A stretch of DNA of 26,879 nucleotides from Hamiltosporidium magnivora (Eukaryota > Microsporidia > Dubosqiidae). Made by a program: the position numbers and the translations under genes. This document shows, piece after piece, positions 1-26,879 of the stretch (positions are counted from its first letter, which is position 1; each line of letters opens with the position of its first letter). The notes under the pieces were generated by a model that did not search any database, was not told the origin of the DNA, and was given only the letters and a program-made list of their open reading frames with translations. Location: assembly GCA_004325065.1 (NCBI GenBank), contig PITI01000057.1:1-26879 (forward strand), in the 5' to 3' direction.

Positions 1-620
1 AAAACTGATGTTAAAATTCGGAATAACAGATCCGACATATTTATTTTAGATAAGAAAAAAATAAGATAACACTCATTGAAGTAGGAATCACTTCCCAAGA
101 TTCACTTCAAATAGTTGAAACTGAAAAAATTACGAAGTATGACCTGCTAGCCAATGAGTTGGGTCTTATTTATAAGTGTAGTGTTGAGATAATCCCTTAT
201 GTGATGACCTGGGACGGTATTGTGACAAAATACCACAAATCTCATCTTAAAAGACTAGAAATACCCATGAATGTAGAGGCATACATTCATTCTATAGTAC
301 TTAAGAAGACAGTCCAAACAATTTCCTTTGATCGATGAAGAGGACTTGATTCAGGACTAAATGCCGAAGAGAGCTGGGAGAGTGTGTCAATGGGTGTTAT
401 TATGAGAGCAGAGATGTATGAGGAACCAACACCCCCTTTAAAAGAAGAGAAGAGAGAGGAAGATGGTGCAAAAAATTTTAAACCAAAAAATAAAGCACCC
501 TTTATTTCACAGGAAGGAACCACTTTAGAGGAACCGACCAATAACATAAATGAACAGTCGAATTTGAAATTAGAGACAAAAGTGGTTAAAGAGGTAGAAG
601 AAAATACATCAAAATGTTAA
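1..620 (+). pseudogene. Non-LTR retrotransposon ORF, C-terminal endonuclease part (copy 1)
   Basis: The reading frame that is open at the left edge ends in TAA at base 69. A one-base shift near 58-66 then moves the meaning into frame 66-620. That frame contains ITLIEVGITSQDSLQIVE and IIPYVMTWDGIVTKYHK, which I recognise as the C-terminal part of microsporidian reverse-transcriptase proteins. The upstream piece RSDIFILD followed by LIEVGI fits the PD-(D/E)xK layout of the restriction-like endonuclease of R2/R4-type non-LTR elements. An in-frame TGA at 336-338 sits where copy 2 has a sense codon (AAA). The frame then stays open into a Glu/Lys/Pro-rich tail ending at 618-620. The reverse transcriptase itself would lie left of the window. 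Two disabling changes against two badly eroded sister copies make this the youngest copy. Its 3' end lies only about 120 bases before the TCP1 start codon. Family assignment is from recalled motifs. Confidence 0.8.
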
Positions 621-728
621 AAATATCTTAACCCAGAATTTTATTAAATAAAATGCACACATTTCTTAAATATAAAAATATTTTTTCCTTTTTTCTTTAA
701 AAATTTCCAAATAAAATATTTTATTAAA

Positions 729-6363: not shown

Positions 6364-6640
6364 TGAATTGTATGGTTTTTTTTCCCACCATGCCGGGAGC
6401 AGAATTGGCTTGGGGTATTCTCTGCTTTTCGTAAGAGTCGACTAAAAAAACTGATCCTCCATATGCGGGGTTGGGCGTAGCGCTAACAACCGACCCTTTA
6501 AAACCACCTTGTTACAAAACCCTCAAAAGTAAACAAACCCACTAGAAAAAGACTAATGGGTGGTGTTACTGAGGGAGGCTAAGGCTCGTGCAGGGGTGTA
6601 GTGCCGAGGATGAATGAATGGTTGTTTATTTTTTTTAGAT
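6364..6640. mobile_element. GC-rich non-coding insert, possible retroposed element
   Basis: Base composition jumps from near 20% to about 47-50% G+C (hand counts of 6421-6480 and 6541-6600) and drops back sharply. There is no ORF. The stretch begins near CCCACCATGCCGGG (6384) and ends in GGATGAATGAATGG, a short simple repeat such as many non-LTR elements and their SINEs carry at the 3' end. TTGGGCGTAGCGCTAACAAC and GAGGCTAAGGCTCGTGCAGG remind me of arthropod non-LTR element ends, but this is memory, not a search. The flanks are similar: TGAATTGTATGGTTTTTTTT on the left and TGAATGAATGGTTGTTTATT on the right, which could be an imperfect target-site duplication. It lies 65 bases after the CHY gene. 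Confidence 0.5.
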
Positions 6641-17605: not shown

Positions 17606-20600
17606 CCAATGTTTTTACTTTTACATTAACAACAAATTTTGTATATTTTTACATATCAAATATAACGAATAGGATATTCTTAAGTTCCAAAATGCACTAA
17701 GAAACAAAGTGAAAATCCAATTTAGCTACATATGTCTAAAAATTCGTATTTAGAATACGTTTTGGCTTCAAGTCGGCGAATTAGCTCTTAAAAATCGAGT
17801 GATTATAGACGCGATAATATTTCTGAAATATAAATCAATCTAATTGATGCAAAACATTATGACATAATATTACTCCTATAATAGATTATGGGAATGCATG
17901 TTGGCACTAAATTCATGTTGCTTCTTATTATTGACAAGAAATTAAATACTATTTAACCTGTAGAAACCTTATATTCAATTATTTGCACGACAAATCCCAA
18001 AATATATTATTTGCGAACAATTCAAACAATTTGAATCTGAATAAAATATATATGTTTAGAAAATATTTGTATTTTATAGATGTAAAAGATACTTGTCAAT
18101 AACATTGAAGCAAATTAAAAAAAACTTTTTTGTCTATTTGTATGATTTTGCTATGTGCATACAAACTATTAAAAATGAATCAGAAAACTTGTTCTAAATT
18201 ATGTCTGTATAACTCAAATATACGTGCTATTTATGATGTTCTAAAAAACCACAAAGAATGGGATGCTTTCTAATAAGTAAATTATATTTTTATAGGCACT
18301 TTAAAAATAATTTTTGATCATAAACAACATATAGATAATCATAGTATAAAATAGGTTCGAATGTAATCGAAATAAACTCACAGCCACAAAAATGGCTAAA
18401 TTTTCTTTTTTTAGCCGATATAGTTCTGGTTTTTTTTCTGTATTTAAATCACTAGAATCAAATAACCATCATTCTATTTGACAAAATCTCACTGTTTTGG
18501 ACATTATTTAGAACACATTTTGGGCTTGTATATTCTCGACAGGTGAAAACAAATTTTACAGTGATTAAAATCTTTGTCCTTTTATTAGGAGTTTTAAACG
18601 TTATCTTTTGACTAGTTTGGTTGCCAATCACACACAAACCATTCCTAGCCGAAGGATAATGATCGATCAACCGGTTGCAAGTCAAAAAACTTTAGTAGAA
18701 ATTCCGTATTTCTAATCATATACCAATGATACGTGAAGTTAATGATACAATATGAAATCTTGGATAAATAGATGATGAAATTCGGTGAGTATTAATGTCT
18801 AAAAGCTTTTTTGCCTAAAGAGGATTTTCTCGAGAAAGCCTAGGAACAAGAAGATATTTTTTAAATAGAATTTCCAAGTATTTATTTTGACTTTATACAA
18901 AAGACATGTAACGGGTGTAAATTAAATTCACATAGATCATTTTTTTAAGAAAAAGTCTTAAAAAGTCTTTATATTGTACAAAAATATCATTTAAAGTTTA
19001 TATGAGAAGTAAGTTTTTATTCTAATTTAGATTCAGTTAAAAATACATGCGAATCTGAAGGCCAAAAGAAAATAAATTCAGAGTTAGTAAAGGAAACGCC
19101 GAAAAACTTACAATTTAAGTATTCATAGAAGATTAAATGTTTTTTTCTTATTTGTTACAATTATTTTATTGATGCCATATTTTTTGACTTCATAGAGTTG
19201 TATAAAACATTCATTCTATAACCGAATTTTCTACGAAAAACACACTTACTATTTTTTCGGAAACATTATGAAATACCTGCTATAAAGACAGTTGAGTCAT
19301 ATTTGACCAGTTTTCAATTGCAGTTAGAAGAACTCAATAAAACTATAAAAGTTTAAAGAAATAATAACAATTAATTCCGTTGAACATAACTTAATTTCTT
19401 AATTATTGAATTCCTCTTTTATCTCTCGATATCGAGGATGAACAGTTGGAAATATTCTAATTGCTTCTTTTAATCTGTTGTAACTCGGGATTATAAGGAA
19501 TTTGCCTTTAGACTAAATGTGCTTTATATTCCATCAAAATGTCAACAATGATTTGCATGTAAATTTCACATACCCATCGCCAATAAGATAGCTTTTAATT
19601 TGGTTATCCTCTCTCCACCTCCGTTGAACATAAACCATTTTATAATACAATTTCATATTTAATTAGATTTTTTTCCTTTAAATATAAGCTTTGCATCAAG
19701 AATCCTTCCGCATATTTCAATTATTGTTATCGTTGAATTGATTTAATAAATCTCTTAATTCTTATAGAATAGTGTCAATTAATTATTCAAAGGCACTCAT
19801 CTTTGAAAAAGATTTTTAATTAAATTTATATTTTTAAAATTAGGCCAAAAAGTGTAAGTTTATATTATTAACTAAATAGTTCTGCAATTTCTGTGAAACT
19901 TACAAAAATAGTCATTTTTCTGAATTTAGAAAATATAATTGAATATAAATTTTTTAATCTCGGATTTTAAAGGGAAAATTAATAATATTGATAGCAACAA
20001 GATTTACCAAATTGTGAAATAAACTTATATTTTAATTTTCCCGAAATCTTCTAATTACAATTTTTATTCAAAAAACTACGTAAATCTTAGTCGTATTACA
20101 AATCATTTTTCTATTCGCAATATTAAAATTAGAATACATAACTTCTAAACATAAAGAAAATATGAAAAATTAATTTCTATAAAAATTATATTAAACACTT
20201 TTATTTCCTAAAATATGATTCAGTTTGTCGGAACAAAATTTTATATGATATTGGCATCTAAATGTTGTTTTTTAAAAAGTACAACTTATAATCATTAAAA
20301 GTAATAATATGCCTATACACAAATCCATTTTAATGATTGATTTCAAAACTAGGAAATACAATTAGTAAGATTTTTTTAAGATAAAATGGAATTAAAGTAT
20401 AAGTGATTTTAAATATTAAAAACTTAAAGAGAAAAAATTAAATTAATAATCCACCCAGACCTATAGAATCGAAAAGCCGCTATTTTCACTCGCTACAGAA
20501 TATTACCATGAAATTTTGATTTACTTTAAAAATTTACCAAATGAGAGAGTTTTATAATTTTAATACTTGAAAGTATATTAAAGCGTCTATTTAAAACTTT

Positions 20601-23687: not shown

Positions 23688-24261
23688 TAAAATATATTTA
23701 ACCTGTAATTGGTCTGTTACTTAACAAAAGAATGTAATGTACTGATAAACATTTTTAGTTTATATGATTGGTATCTTCGCATCTAAATAACAAATAAAAT
23801 TGATTTCCAAAAATTATTTGTAAAAAATTGCATTTTTTTCAATCGTTATATAATTTCTCAATTCTTTAGAACAAATCCTTGATTGGGTATAACCTAATAA
23901 AAGCCTGAGATTATATATTTTTTATGATTTTTTTTATATTTTGAACTATAATGGAAAAAAAAAGTGAACCAATGGTCCATCCTATTATTTTTCTGCTGAG
24001 ATTATTAAAGACAGAGTAGCAATAATTTTCTTAATGCCAATGTTTCCATTTACCCTTCCGTTAATAAGAAATGTCGTATTTTATTCTTTCTCCCGGTTAA
24101 AAAATAAGAAATGCTATTATAAACTGTCATTGTCTCGAACTACACAAATCTTTGCATATATAAAGTTAAAATTTAAAATTTTGCTCGCTTTCAATTGTAT
24201 TTTCATATTCTATATGCTCGGTTTTGGAAGAATTTCTTACTAAAAATATACTTAATTTTCT
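23688..24261. other. AT-rich spacer, no gene seen
   Basis: One 69-codon frame at 24034-24243 has hydrophobic runs but no start signal or family match and ends just before the GC-rich island. I treat it as chance. Confidence 0.45.
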
Positions 24262-24960
24262 GTTGATGGTAGAGTGAGGATAACCCCATAAAAAACTTTT
24301 TGCTTGACAATGAGTGTGTGAACTGGTGTGAGGATCATTGTGTGGATTTTTGGCGGGAATAAAACCACACTACATCTTCGGTTGTTCAATGGGAGTTTGT
24401 ATGACGAAGAGGTCTACAAAACGGTGAAACTTTTTCTACAAATTTATTTGTAGTTTTTTATGTAACTGGACCAAAGGCCACGGTCAAATATGTAGGTAAT
24501 TACCATGTAAAAGCATGGAAACCTAACCTTGGTCACCGGGTTAGAAGAATTAGCGTCTGGGAGATATAAAAATAGAAACCATTAAAAGCCGGGATAGCTA
24601 AGTAGCAGGTTATACCTGTTGGTATGACATTGCACTGTGTAGTTGGACTCCCTGTTAAGTCACTGAAATATACTTAGCTAGAAGTTTATTGGGTTAGGAA
24701 AGTGTAGAGTAAGTGGGAATGCTGCATAATCTTGGGGTGCTCAAGGGGGGCTTCGGCCTTCGATCACACTCCATGCAACGGACATTAACGAACTTCGGGC
24801 AACTACCCCGCCTATTAATTAGGTTCTACACACCTAGTAGATGAAAGGCTTTGGGACTTAGGTACCGCAGGGAGTACTGATGGATGTTGGATTAGAAGTT
24901 ATTTATGTTAAACCCAGAACTGCGTTAATGCCAGGAAAACAAATATAACACTTGGCACTG
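24262..24960. other. GC-rich structured non-coding island
   Basis: About 700 bases stand out by composition (about 55% G+C by hand count of 24721-24780) and have no coding frame. They hold many perfect or near-perfect inverted repeats. GTGTGG-A-TTTT (24340-24350) pairs with AAAACCACAC (24361-24370). CTACAAAT (24436-24443) pairs with ATTTGTAG (24446-24453) and is followed by six T. A nested stem is formed by ACCAAAGG (24470-24477) with CCTTGGT (24527-24533), TAGGT (24493-24497) with ACCTA (24521-24525), and CCATG (24503-24507) with CATGG (24514-24518). TAGCTAAGTA (24595-24604) pairs with TACTTAGCTA (24671-24680) around a CAGGT/ACCTG hairpin (24606-24618). GGC-TTCG-GCC lies near 24750. It could be a structured RNA, or the untranslated part of a retroelement, possibly host-derived. 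I matched no known RNA family. Confidence 0.6.
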
Positions 24961-25659
24961 TTTTAAAAAGATGTGAACCCTAAATAAAGTAACGATTTTT
25001 CGTTGATATCTATTTTACCCCCCTCTTTTTCTTCATTGCATTTCCTTGTTAAATTGCATAAAATGTGATAAAAACATGTTAATAAAAACTGAAAAAAACA
25101 CTTTTTGTAAAACCGATTAATTTAAAGTTATTTTAGTAACTTGGGGTTCTATTTTGGTTATTTTTCAAATTTTTATATTTTTAGATTAAGTTACAAAGGT
25201 TTGTCATATTTAAAGGAAAATTTGAAAAAAAAAAAACCAGTAGAAGATAATTATATAAAAATGGAATAAATGAAAAATGCATTAGAACTTAAAATTCTTT
25301 CACTTTTTGGAATTTTTCTTAATTAGATTTTTCTGATATTTTGTGAATTCTTTTTTTTTAATTTTTTTATAACTTCTTTTTAATTTCCTTTTTTTATTTT
25401 TTAAATTAGTTTCAACATTTGTTTAAATTTTTTTGCGTTTAAAACTGTCTTATTTTATTAAAATTCTTTAATCTATCAAAAAATCAATATTTTCCCGCCA
25501 AAAAAGCATAAATACGAATATTTTTAAGGCGCCATCTGATTTAGCAGATGTGATATTAAGATCTGCTGGATTTTATTTTTAACCAGGATAAAATTCAGAT
25601 TGTAGGGTAGTAAATATAAAATAGGACAAGAAATATTAATTTTTATGACATTTTTACAC
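24961..25659. other. AT-rich spacer, no gene seen
   Basis: This is T-rich and A-rich sequence with long homopolymer runs. A small perfect hairpin, CATCTG (25533-25538) with CAGATG (25545-25550), lies in a short GC-richer patch. No ORF or RNA gene was recognised. Confidence 0.45.
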
Positions 25660-26879
25660 CGCAGCCTATAAATGAACTTCGAAGAAGCCTAAATAATCTT
25701 GAGTTACGAAACTAACACATGCTTCTGTAACTCTTAGATTGTCTAGAAAATGGTAAGGAAATACCAACTCGATGAGCGGTAATTCTAACGGGATGAATAC
25801 TAAGAAAAGCCATCTTGCACTAATAAAATGCTTCTTGAAACTAAAATATAGGTTAGAAGAAAAGTCAAATCAATATAATTTAGAAGTAGCTTAACTTGCA
25901 AAATTATATACCGAAATATAAAAGCATAAATATCATTCAAGGTTATATAATAGAAGAATAAATGAGCTTTTGTGTGTAGGAGACTTTCTAGGTTTCTAAA
26001 GAAATGAACATGCATCCAAGAGAGGAAAATCTGTTTTAATATAACCCTTATCGAGAATGTATTCTCGGAGAAATAGATATGATTCCAAACCACAATAAAT
26101 GTGTTAAAATACTAGGCATTCAGCAGCTCGATGCAAGAATCTAGTCGGGCATTACTATAATAGACGGCAAAGAGAGAGGGTAGATGCCTACACTTACTCC
26201 TTTTAAATTGATATTAATTCAAATCAACAAAACGAATTAAGAGTCACTCAGTCCAAGAAACTTTCGAAAACAAACATATGAAAATACGAGTAGACGCTGT
26301 GATAAAAACTGATGTAAAACCTCTGAATAATTGATCCGAAATATATAATTTGAATAATATTAAAAAGAAGAACATTTATTGAAGTGATAATTGCACCTCG
26401 AGATCTACTTCAGATAGTTATAATTGAAAAAATTGTAAAGATGACCTATTAGCAAACGATTTGTGTTTTATTTATAGGATAAGTATTCAAATAATCCCTT
26501 ATTTTATAATCCAAGATGGTATTGTGACAAAATATCATCAGTAATACCTCAAAATATCGCAAATATCTATGATTATGAAAGCATATAGTTAATTGATGGC
26601 ATTTAAGAAGAAAGGCAAAATAATTTATTTTGATCGAAAAAGAGGACCCGAGTCGTGATCAAATGATGAATAGAGCTGGGGAAAAATGTCAATGAGTGTT
26701 ATAAAAAAGCAAAAAAGCATGATGATACAATACTCGTATTAGACAAGTTAGTATAGAAAAAAATTGTATTAACCTTGTAAAAATAGCAAATCCTATATTA
26801 TAGATAAAAGATGAGTAGTACTGTAAATAAAGAGTCGGATTTGGAAGAATTAAAGATTTCGTAAGAGGTAGAAGAAAAT
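25660..26879 (+). pseudogene. Decayed non-LTR retrotransposon ORF (copy 2), runs off the window
   Basis: From 26305 to the last base this aligns with copy 1 from base 1 to about 605, in the same orientation. It starts with AAAACTGATG in both and ends with GAGGTAGAAGAAAAT in both. Upstream of that, 26117-26176 reads HSAARCKNLVGHYYNRR. I recognise this as the His-x4-Cys zinc-knuckle stretch that lies between reverse transcriptase and endonuclease in this family. RVDAVIKTDV begins at 26287. Further upstream, short frames such as the one starting ATG at 25794 (MNTKKSHLALIKCFLKLKYR) and YNRRINELLCVG near 25950 look like the region before the zinc knuckle, so the copy extends left to about 25660. 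Stops and shifts are frequent. No reverse-transcriptase core (YADD-type) was seen, so this copy is probably 5'-truncated. Confidence 0.75.

What the first reader, a model, noticed from the sequence alone, without database searches (positions are those of the whole stretch)
24262..24960. Foreign-looking 700-bp island packed with nested inverted repeats: candidate structured RNA or element UTR
Seen directly: sharp G+C rise, no ORF, and a series of stems. These include a perfect 10-bp long-range stem (24595-24604 with 24671-24680) enclosing a smaller hairpin, and a three-tier nested stem (24470-24533). So many GC-containing, correctly nested pairings are hard to expect by chance in non-coding DNA. 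Inference: selected RNA structure, either a stand-alone ncRNA or the untranslated region of a retroelement. Its composition matches neither the genes nor the spacers, so recent arrival, perhaps from an arthropod host, is possible.
Basis: partly seen in the sequence, partly recalled or inferred. Interest (0 to 1): 0.75.

Follow-up and report, generated by a model that had tools for sequence, protein, structure and literature searches.

The report
SINE-like jumping repeat in microsporidian
The odd GC-rich patch is one of roughly two hundred or more decaying copies of a non-coding jumping element in a parasite of water fleas, so its apparent RNA folds are not conserved, but two related families of such elements make an overlooked kind of repeat for this group.

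Summary
The GC island is real, but it is not a conserved structured RNA. It is one copy (24269-24990) of a dispersed, non-coding family of about 728 bp. The genome holds about 200 places by motif count; fetched copies are 61-98% identical to the family majority. Ends are sharp, flanks unrelated and no long ORF is shared. Target-site duplications of 10-16 bp flank 14 of 36 full-length copies, against 0.4% of 1260 mismatched flank pairs, as expected of LINE-driven retroposition. The first 105 or so bases are shared with a shorter family (about 220 bp, TAAG-type tail); one copy of it also lies in this window (19390-19618, minus strand) with a perfect 14-bp duplication. Copies decay toward the genome's composition, which explains the odd GC. 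The host is a Hamiltosporidium, probably H. magnivora. No tRNA/5S/7SL ancestry, Pol III boxes or LINE-shared terminus were found, so it works like a SINE but is not a classical one. I found no earlier report of SINEs in microsporidia (CC-licensed papers only).

The parts
24269..24990 (+). Full-length copy of the long (~728 bp) SINE-like retroposon family; 89.5% identical to the family majority
24269..24371 (+). 5' head module shared with the short family (66-73% identical to the 9 short copies compared)
24255..24267 (+). 5' target-site duplication ATTTTCTGTTGAT (11 of 13 match the 3' copy; decayed, not significant on its own: 10.6% of mismatched flank pairs score as high). One extra G follows at 24268.
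24991..24994 (+). Four extra bases between the family's 3' end (...AAATAAAGT) and the duplicated target; other copies carry up to 18 unrelated bases here
24995..25007 (+). 3' target-site duplication ATTTTTCGTTGAT
19390..19618 (-). Copy of the short (~220 bp) SINE-like family with degenerate TAAG-type tail
19620..19633 (-). 5' target-site duplication of the short copy, TTATGTTCAACGGA
19376..19389 (-). 3' target-site duplication of the short copy, TTATGTTCAACGGA (14 of 14 identical)

Best explanation
The island is one decaying copy of a non-autonomous, SINE-like retroposon. A source copy is transcribed from its 5' end (starting GTGGAGG). The endonuclease and reverse transcriptase of a resident LINE take up the RNA in trans, nick AT-rich DNA, and reverse-transcribe it at the nick (target-primed reverse transcription), which leaves 10-16 bp duplications. 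Each copy then drifts neutrally toward the AT-rich genome composition. Shown: copies, ends, duplications, shared head, AT-ward decay, and a LINE with an intact reading frame in the same genome. Inferred: transcription, LINE drive in trans, and which LINE does it.
For: Own-genome search: 40 of 40 scored places match (the window itself included), nearly all over the full element, with unrelated flanks. Motif counts: 208 tail places and 201 internal places, 0 for the reversed-pattern control. TSD score of 10 or more in 14 of 36 full-length copies, against 0.4% of 1260 mismatched pairs. 37 of 40 long copies begin within 6 bases of the family start; up to 18 unrelated bases precede the 3' duplication. 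A second family shares only the head (72-79% in 9 of 9 copies, 3 of which had been found through the head) and has its own TSDs (5 of 10 copies against 2 of 90 mismatched pairs); 40 of 40 scored places (query included) of 163 candidates. Substitutions imply an equilibrium GC of 0.256; GC rises with identity to the majority (rho 0.61, n = 40). Copies span 61-98% identity. Perfect tails lie within 710 bp of a contig start in 21 of 80 cases, 3.4 expected, which suggests young near-identical copies break the assembly. A LINE with an intact 914-aa frame (RVT_1 110 bits; endonuclease match 21.1 bits, below its 24.5-bit cut-off) is present.
Against: No LINE sampled shares its 3' end with the element. 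A 48-bp, 73-77% similarity (E 2e-5 and 1e-3; 0 of 200 shuffles as good) lies inside the 3' region of one LINE, about 310 bp before its end. No poly(A) tail. No tRNA-type A/B boxes beyond shuffles and no Rfam relative. Subfamily structure is weak: 2 of 561 variant-column pairs with r2 > 0.4, one of them adjacent columns; permuted mean 0.08, maximum 2. 22 of 36 copies score under 10 in the TSD test, and the window copy's own TSD scores only 7. No transcript data.
Confidence: 0.83

Rival explanations
1. Retropseudogenes of one functional cellular non-coding RNA: a conserved, GC-rich RNA gene of the parasite is retrocopied repeatedly by LINEs, and the copies themselves never propagate.
For: Near-star relations among copies. 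GC-richer source in an AT-rich genome, as structured RNA genes often are (recalled). Slight plus-strand folding bias: majority z = -1.60, 9 of 10 single copies negative.
Against: A second family shares only the head, which fits a reusable promoter module better than one RNA gene. No Rfam family matches at E up to 10 beyond chance-level hits.
Confidence: 0.11
2. A stand-alone structured RNA, or a UTR under selection for its stems.
For: Perfect 10-bp stem and three-tier nest in this copy. The middle tier is kept whole by 29 of 40 copies.
Against: Consensus fold -5.4 kcal/mol for 40 copies. 10-bp stem and outer tier complete in 1 of 40 copies each; no covariation above shuffles. Fold z = -1.56. 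Decay toward genome composition.
Confidence: 0.03
3. A non-autonomous DNA transposon (MITE) or a solo LTR.
For: Short, non-coding and multi-copy; DNA transposons and LTR elements occur in this genus and genome.
Against: None of the 4 inverted pairs found lies at the two ends. TSDs are long and vary from 10 to 16 bp, not fixed and short as for those classes (recalled). Ends are not TG...CA. The Ty3-type element at L070 has no match to the family better than E = 0.14.
Confidence: 0.03

Closest known systems
EhSINE1 of Entamoeba histolytica (PMC2996970, passages seen)
   Same: Non-coding, about 500-600 bp, flanked by TSDs, conserved 5' and 3' ends, only limited similarity to A and B boxes, presumed LINE-driven.
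   Different: EhSINE1 shares about 70 bp with EhLINE1 at the 3' end, is polyadenylated and has internal 26-27 bp repeats. Here no shared LINE terminus was found, and there is no poly(A) tail.
Classical tRNA-, 5S- or 7SL-derived SINEs (recalled)
   Same: Head module shared by families with different bodies and tails; TSDs; short-repeat tail in the short family.
   Different: No tRNA, 5S or 7SL similarity in Rfam searches and no A/B boxes; the long family has a body of about 620 bp.
RIME/NARTc of trypanosomatids (as described in PMC2996970)
   Same: Short non-autonomous partner of a LINE.
   Different: Those resemble their LINE along their length. Of 17 RT-region pieces compared here, 8 match the LINE protein and none of these 8 resembles the element beyond the 48-bp stretch; one other piece (L082) carries a 65% match over 392 bases that looks like an old inserted copy.

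Membership tests
SINE (non-autonomous, LINE-mobilised retroposon) | Non-coding, short, dispersed, multi-copy | tested here: met
SINE (non-autonomous, LINE-mobilised retroposon) | Variable-length target-site duplications (TPRT) | tested here: met
   short family
SINE (non-autonomous, LINE-mobilised retroposon) | Internal Pol III promoter (A/B boxes) or tRNA/5S/7SL ancestry | tested here: not met
   best A+B score 10-11 of 14 in five heads/elements, reached by 266-300 of 300 shuffles; whole long element 12 of 14, reached by 51 of 60 (box consensus recalled); no such Rfam hit at E up to 10
SINE (non-autonomous, LINE-mobilised retroposon) | 3' tail shared with a partner LINE, or poly(A)/simple-repeat tail | tested here: inconclusive
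   long family: no terminal match among 17 RT-region pieces (8 of them matching the LINE protein); 48-bp internal similarity only. Short family: TAAG-repeat tail
SINE (non-autonomous, LINE-mobilised retroposon) | LINE enzymes available in the same genome | tested here: met
   39 RVT_1 matches (LTR-type ones included), one in an intact 914-aa LINE frame
SINE (non-autonomous, LINE-mobilised retroposon) | Transcribed and mobilised in trans | not testable with these tools
   no RNA reads or assay
Selected structured RNA family | Covarying conserved stems | tested here: not met
MITE / DNA transposon | Terminal inverted repeats and fixed-length TSD | tested here: not met
Solo LTR | TG...CA ends with 4-6 bp TSD (recalled) | tested here: not met

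The most novel reading that the evidence does not exclude
A SINE superfamily of microsporidia without a recognisable Pol III promoter: a head of about 105 nt of unknown RNA origin has been joined to at least two unrelated bodies (about 115 and 620 nt) with different 3' ends. It uses host LINEs, is still spreading, and makes up part of the unclassified quarter of the Hamiltosporidium genome; the long body may be a captured cellular non-coding RNA.
Probability: 0.35. Interest if true: 0.6.

Novelty: new variant of a known kind. Interest (0 to 1): 0.42.

Why it matters
Microsporidia are models of genome reduction, and Hamiltosporidium is a large-genome exception: 39.56% interspersed repeats in H. 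tvaerminnensis, with 25.45% of the genome in the class 'other' (PMC10542269, passages). Two SINE-like families with a shared head could account for part of that fraction and for many assembly breaks. They also give dated, apparently neutral copies for measuring mutation bias: the implied equilibrium GC of 0.256 is close to the 26.6% reported for H. tvaerminnensis. A SINE-like element without known Pol III ancestry in this phylum bears on how SINE heads arise.

Tried and rejected
Rfam, gathering threshold: 0 matches in the window. Rfam at E up to 10 on the window copy and on a 96%-identical copy gave only chance-level hits. ARAGORN: no tRNA. Protein-coding reading: 10-20 stops per frame in the majority sequence, longest open stretch 77 aa; substitutions by frame 977/881/882, mildly uneven (chi-square p = 0.036), which I do not take as coding; a 71-aa open frame finds no candidate protein. 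LINE-tail sharing: no terminal match; the listing was cut, so the Ty3-type locus was compared again. Two pieces fetched around RT matches carry the family itself: L082 (bases 9-392 of the element, 65%) and the edge of L076 (bases 1-58, 83%); neither piece matches the LINE protein, and I read them as inserted copies. The C64 contig was hoped to be an empty site for the LINE, but essentially only its 3' flank matches. Exact 23-base scans of viral and prokaryote collections: 0. Pol III boxes: none. Subfamilies by linkage: weak.

Organism: the window's TCP-1 is listed at 100% to H. tvaerminnensis, but the sequences differ at one residue (560 of 561 identical). Contig C105 (21,997 bp) carries a stretch 100% identical over 69 aa to a protein named H. 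magnivora on a contig of the same length. So H. magnivora is inferred, not proven.

Rows dropped: of 50 pieces in 60 loci, 5 are heads of the short family and 45 are long-family; 40 of at least 690 aligned positions entered the alignment, and 36 with both ends and full flanks entered the TSD test. The first alignment left out 3 identical copies and matches under 500 bases. The copies fetched were the best-scoring ones, so 5'-truncated and very old copies are under-represented. Motif counts include near-identical contig pairs (for example C461/C627, C257/C312). The TSD score uses a milder mismatch penalty, and its cut-off of 9 was not set beforehand.

Full report
What was reported and what is there. 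The composition step is real (0.415-0.417 against 0.20-0.25), no ORF of 80 aa or more overlaps it, and the quoted 10-bp inverted repeat is present. Folding is only slightly better than chance: z = -1.56 on the plus strand with 1 of 20 shuffles as good, and z = -0.17 on the minus strand with 8 of 20. Rfam gives nothing.

A dispersed repeat. Searching the window's own assembly (G000, 10.74 Mb in 644 contigs) with the island gave matches at 40 of 40 scored places (the window included) out of 637 first-look candidates, 83-88% identical outside the window and nearly all over the whole stretch. Widening the query by about 400 bases on each side moved the ends of the matches only slightly, to about 24990 on the right. 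An alignment of 29 copies shows abrupt ends, GTGGAGGGAGG...TTTTAAATAAAGT, with unrelated flanks. Sixty fetched loci hold 50 distinct pieces, 45 of them of this family, 61-98% identical to the majority. A tail motif occurs at 208 places and an internal motif at 201 (up to 2 mismatches), each with 0 in the reversed control; a head motif, which can also hit the short family, occurs at 362 places (up to 3 mismatches). Diverged copies are missed by these motifs, while near-identical contigs are counted twice, so about 200 is a rough figure for these contigs.

How the copies were made. Direct repeats of 10-16 bp flank many copies. With one scoring rule, 14 of 36 full-length copies score 10 or more, against 0.4% of 1260 pairings of one copy's left flank with another's right flank. 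The 5' end is nearly fixed (37 of 40 long copies start within 6 bases of the family start); up to 18 unrelated bases separate the 3' end from the duplication. The window copy has ATTTTCTGTTGAT (24255-24267) and ATTTTTCGTTGAT (24995-25007): decayed, and not significant on its own (score 7, reached by 10.6% of mismatched pairs). Long duplications of varying length, full-length 5' ends and no terminal inverted repeats point to target-primed reverse transcription by LINE enzymes (established mechanism, recalled). The genome has 39 RVT_1 matches, LTR-type ones among them, and one LINE with an intact 914-aa frame (RVT_1 110 bits; endonuclease 21.1 bits, below the 24.5-bit cut-off). Its nine best relatives of 108 are named Hamiltosporidium reverse transcriptases.

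A second family with the same head. Pieces matching only the first 110 or so bases led to a shorter family of about 220 bp: 40 of 40 scored places (query included), the others 73-81% identical, of 163 candidates. In 9 of 9 copies examined its head matches the long family's head over about 100 bases at 72-79%; 3 of the 9 had been found through that head, 6 through the short element itself. It ends in TAAG-type repeats and has its own TSDs (score 9 or more in 5 of 10 copies, 2 of 90 mismatched pairs). A copy lies in this same window at 19390-19618 on the minus strand with a perfect 14-bp duplication. A head shared by families with different bodies and tails is typical of SINEs (recalled).

Structure is not maintained. 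Across 40 copies the consensus fold is -5.4 kcal/mol, against -195 for the single copy; the covariation term is +0.12, and 8 of the 40 predicted pairs show at least one both-sided change. The 10-bp stem and the outer tier of the nest are complete only in the window copy, 1 of 40 each. The middle tier is kept whole by 29, the inner by 15 and the small hairpin by 19 of 40. Pairing equals shuffled columns (78.1% against 78.0%) and the covariation score is below the shuffled mean (0.075 against 0.080). The structure does beat versions with slid partners (30-37% paired, covariation 0.02-0.06), as expected when it is taken from one of the rows, while slid versions have more both-sided changes. Folding z of the majority is -1.60; ten single copies range from -2.32 to +0.11, nine of them negative. 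A modest structure in the source RNA cannot be excluded.

Why the composition is odd. From the majority outward, GC-to-AT changes are 0.124 per GC site and AT-to-GC 0.043 per AT site, which implies an equilibrium GC of 0.256; more diverged copies are poorer in GC (rho 0.61, n = 40). Published genome GC of H. tvaerminnensis is 26.6% (PMC10542269, passages). The island is therefore best read as a relic of a GC-richer source drifting neutrally. Of 80 perfect tails (of 208 places), 21 lie within 710 bp of a contig start (3.4 expected), all in the direction expected if contigs begin inside a copy: young copies seem to break the assembly.

Organism. TCP-1 differs from H. tvaerminnensis LUQ84_3589 at one residue. 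Contig C105 matches an H. magnivora record in length and in a 69-aa stretch. H. magnivora is the likely source.

What it is not, and limits. No tRNA-type Pol III boxes beyond shuffles and no known RNA ancestry. Among 17 RT-region pieces, 8 of which match the LINE protein, none shares its 3' end with the element. The LINE at C233 has one other copy (C329, 89%) and ends about 310 bp beyond a 48-bp stretch that is 73-77% like the element's tail region, better than 200 of 200 shuffles. It works like a SINE; strict membership in the Pol III class fails the test made here. Literature: searches for microsporidia with SINE terms listed 6 of 6, 15 of 33 and 16 of 16 papers, and Hamiltosporidium with SINE found 0; no listed title or abstract opening is about SINEs of microsporidia. 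Term searches within PMC10542269, PMC7313128, PMC4202319, PMC12449221 and PMC13174016 found no 'SINE'; the passages seen report LINEs, LTR elements, DNA transposons, MITEs or unclassified repeats. PMC6416283 names SINEs only in general. Only CC-licensed papers were searched, and supplements could not be read.

Noticed in passing
window 19376-19633: Second, shorter SINE-like family copy on the minus strand with a perfect 14-bp target-site duplication.
   Followed up: yes
window 1-649: Another repeat: 82.7% identical to L021 825-1483, with partial matches at L015 and L058; not identified.
   Followed up: no
window 6380-6619 and 26284-26725: Repeats matching L055 2318-2560 (75%) and L021 804-1250 (68%); not identified.
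   Followed up: no
L069 2968-3072 and 3132-3179; L075 957-1004: Inverted repeat GATATACTCAT...ATGAGTATATC in the LINE 3' region, and a 48-bp stretch 73-77% like the long element's tail.
   Followed up: partly
L069 and L074 LINE 3' regions (variant in L075): A hairpin-like motif GGCRGGGAGCC...CYGCCATATTT recurs after the frames of different LINEs and could be a 3' recognition signal.
   Followed up: no
L033 243-665: Two short-family copies in inverted orientation, forming a long imperfect inverted repeat.
   Followed up: no
L082 624-1008; L076 1542-1598: Pieces of the long family close to reverse-transcriptase matches, read as inserted copies.
   Followed up: partly
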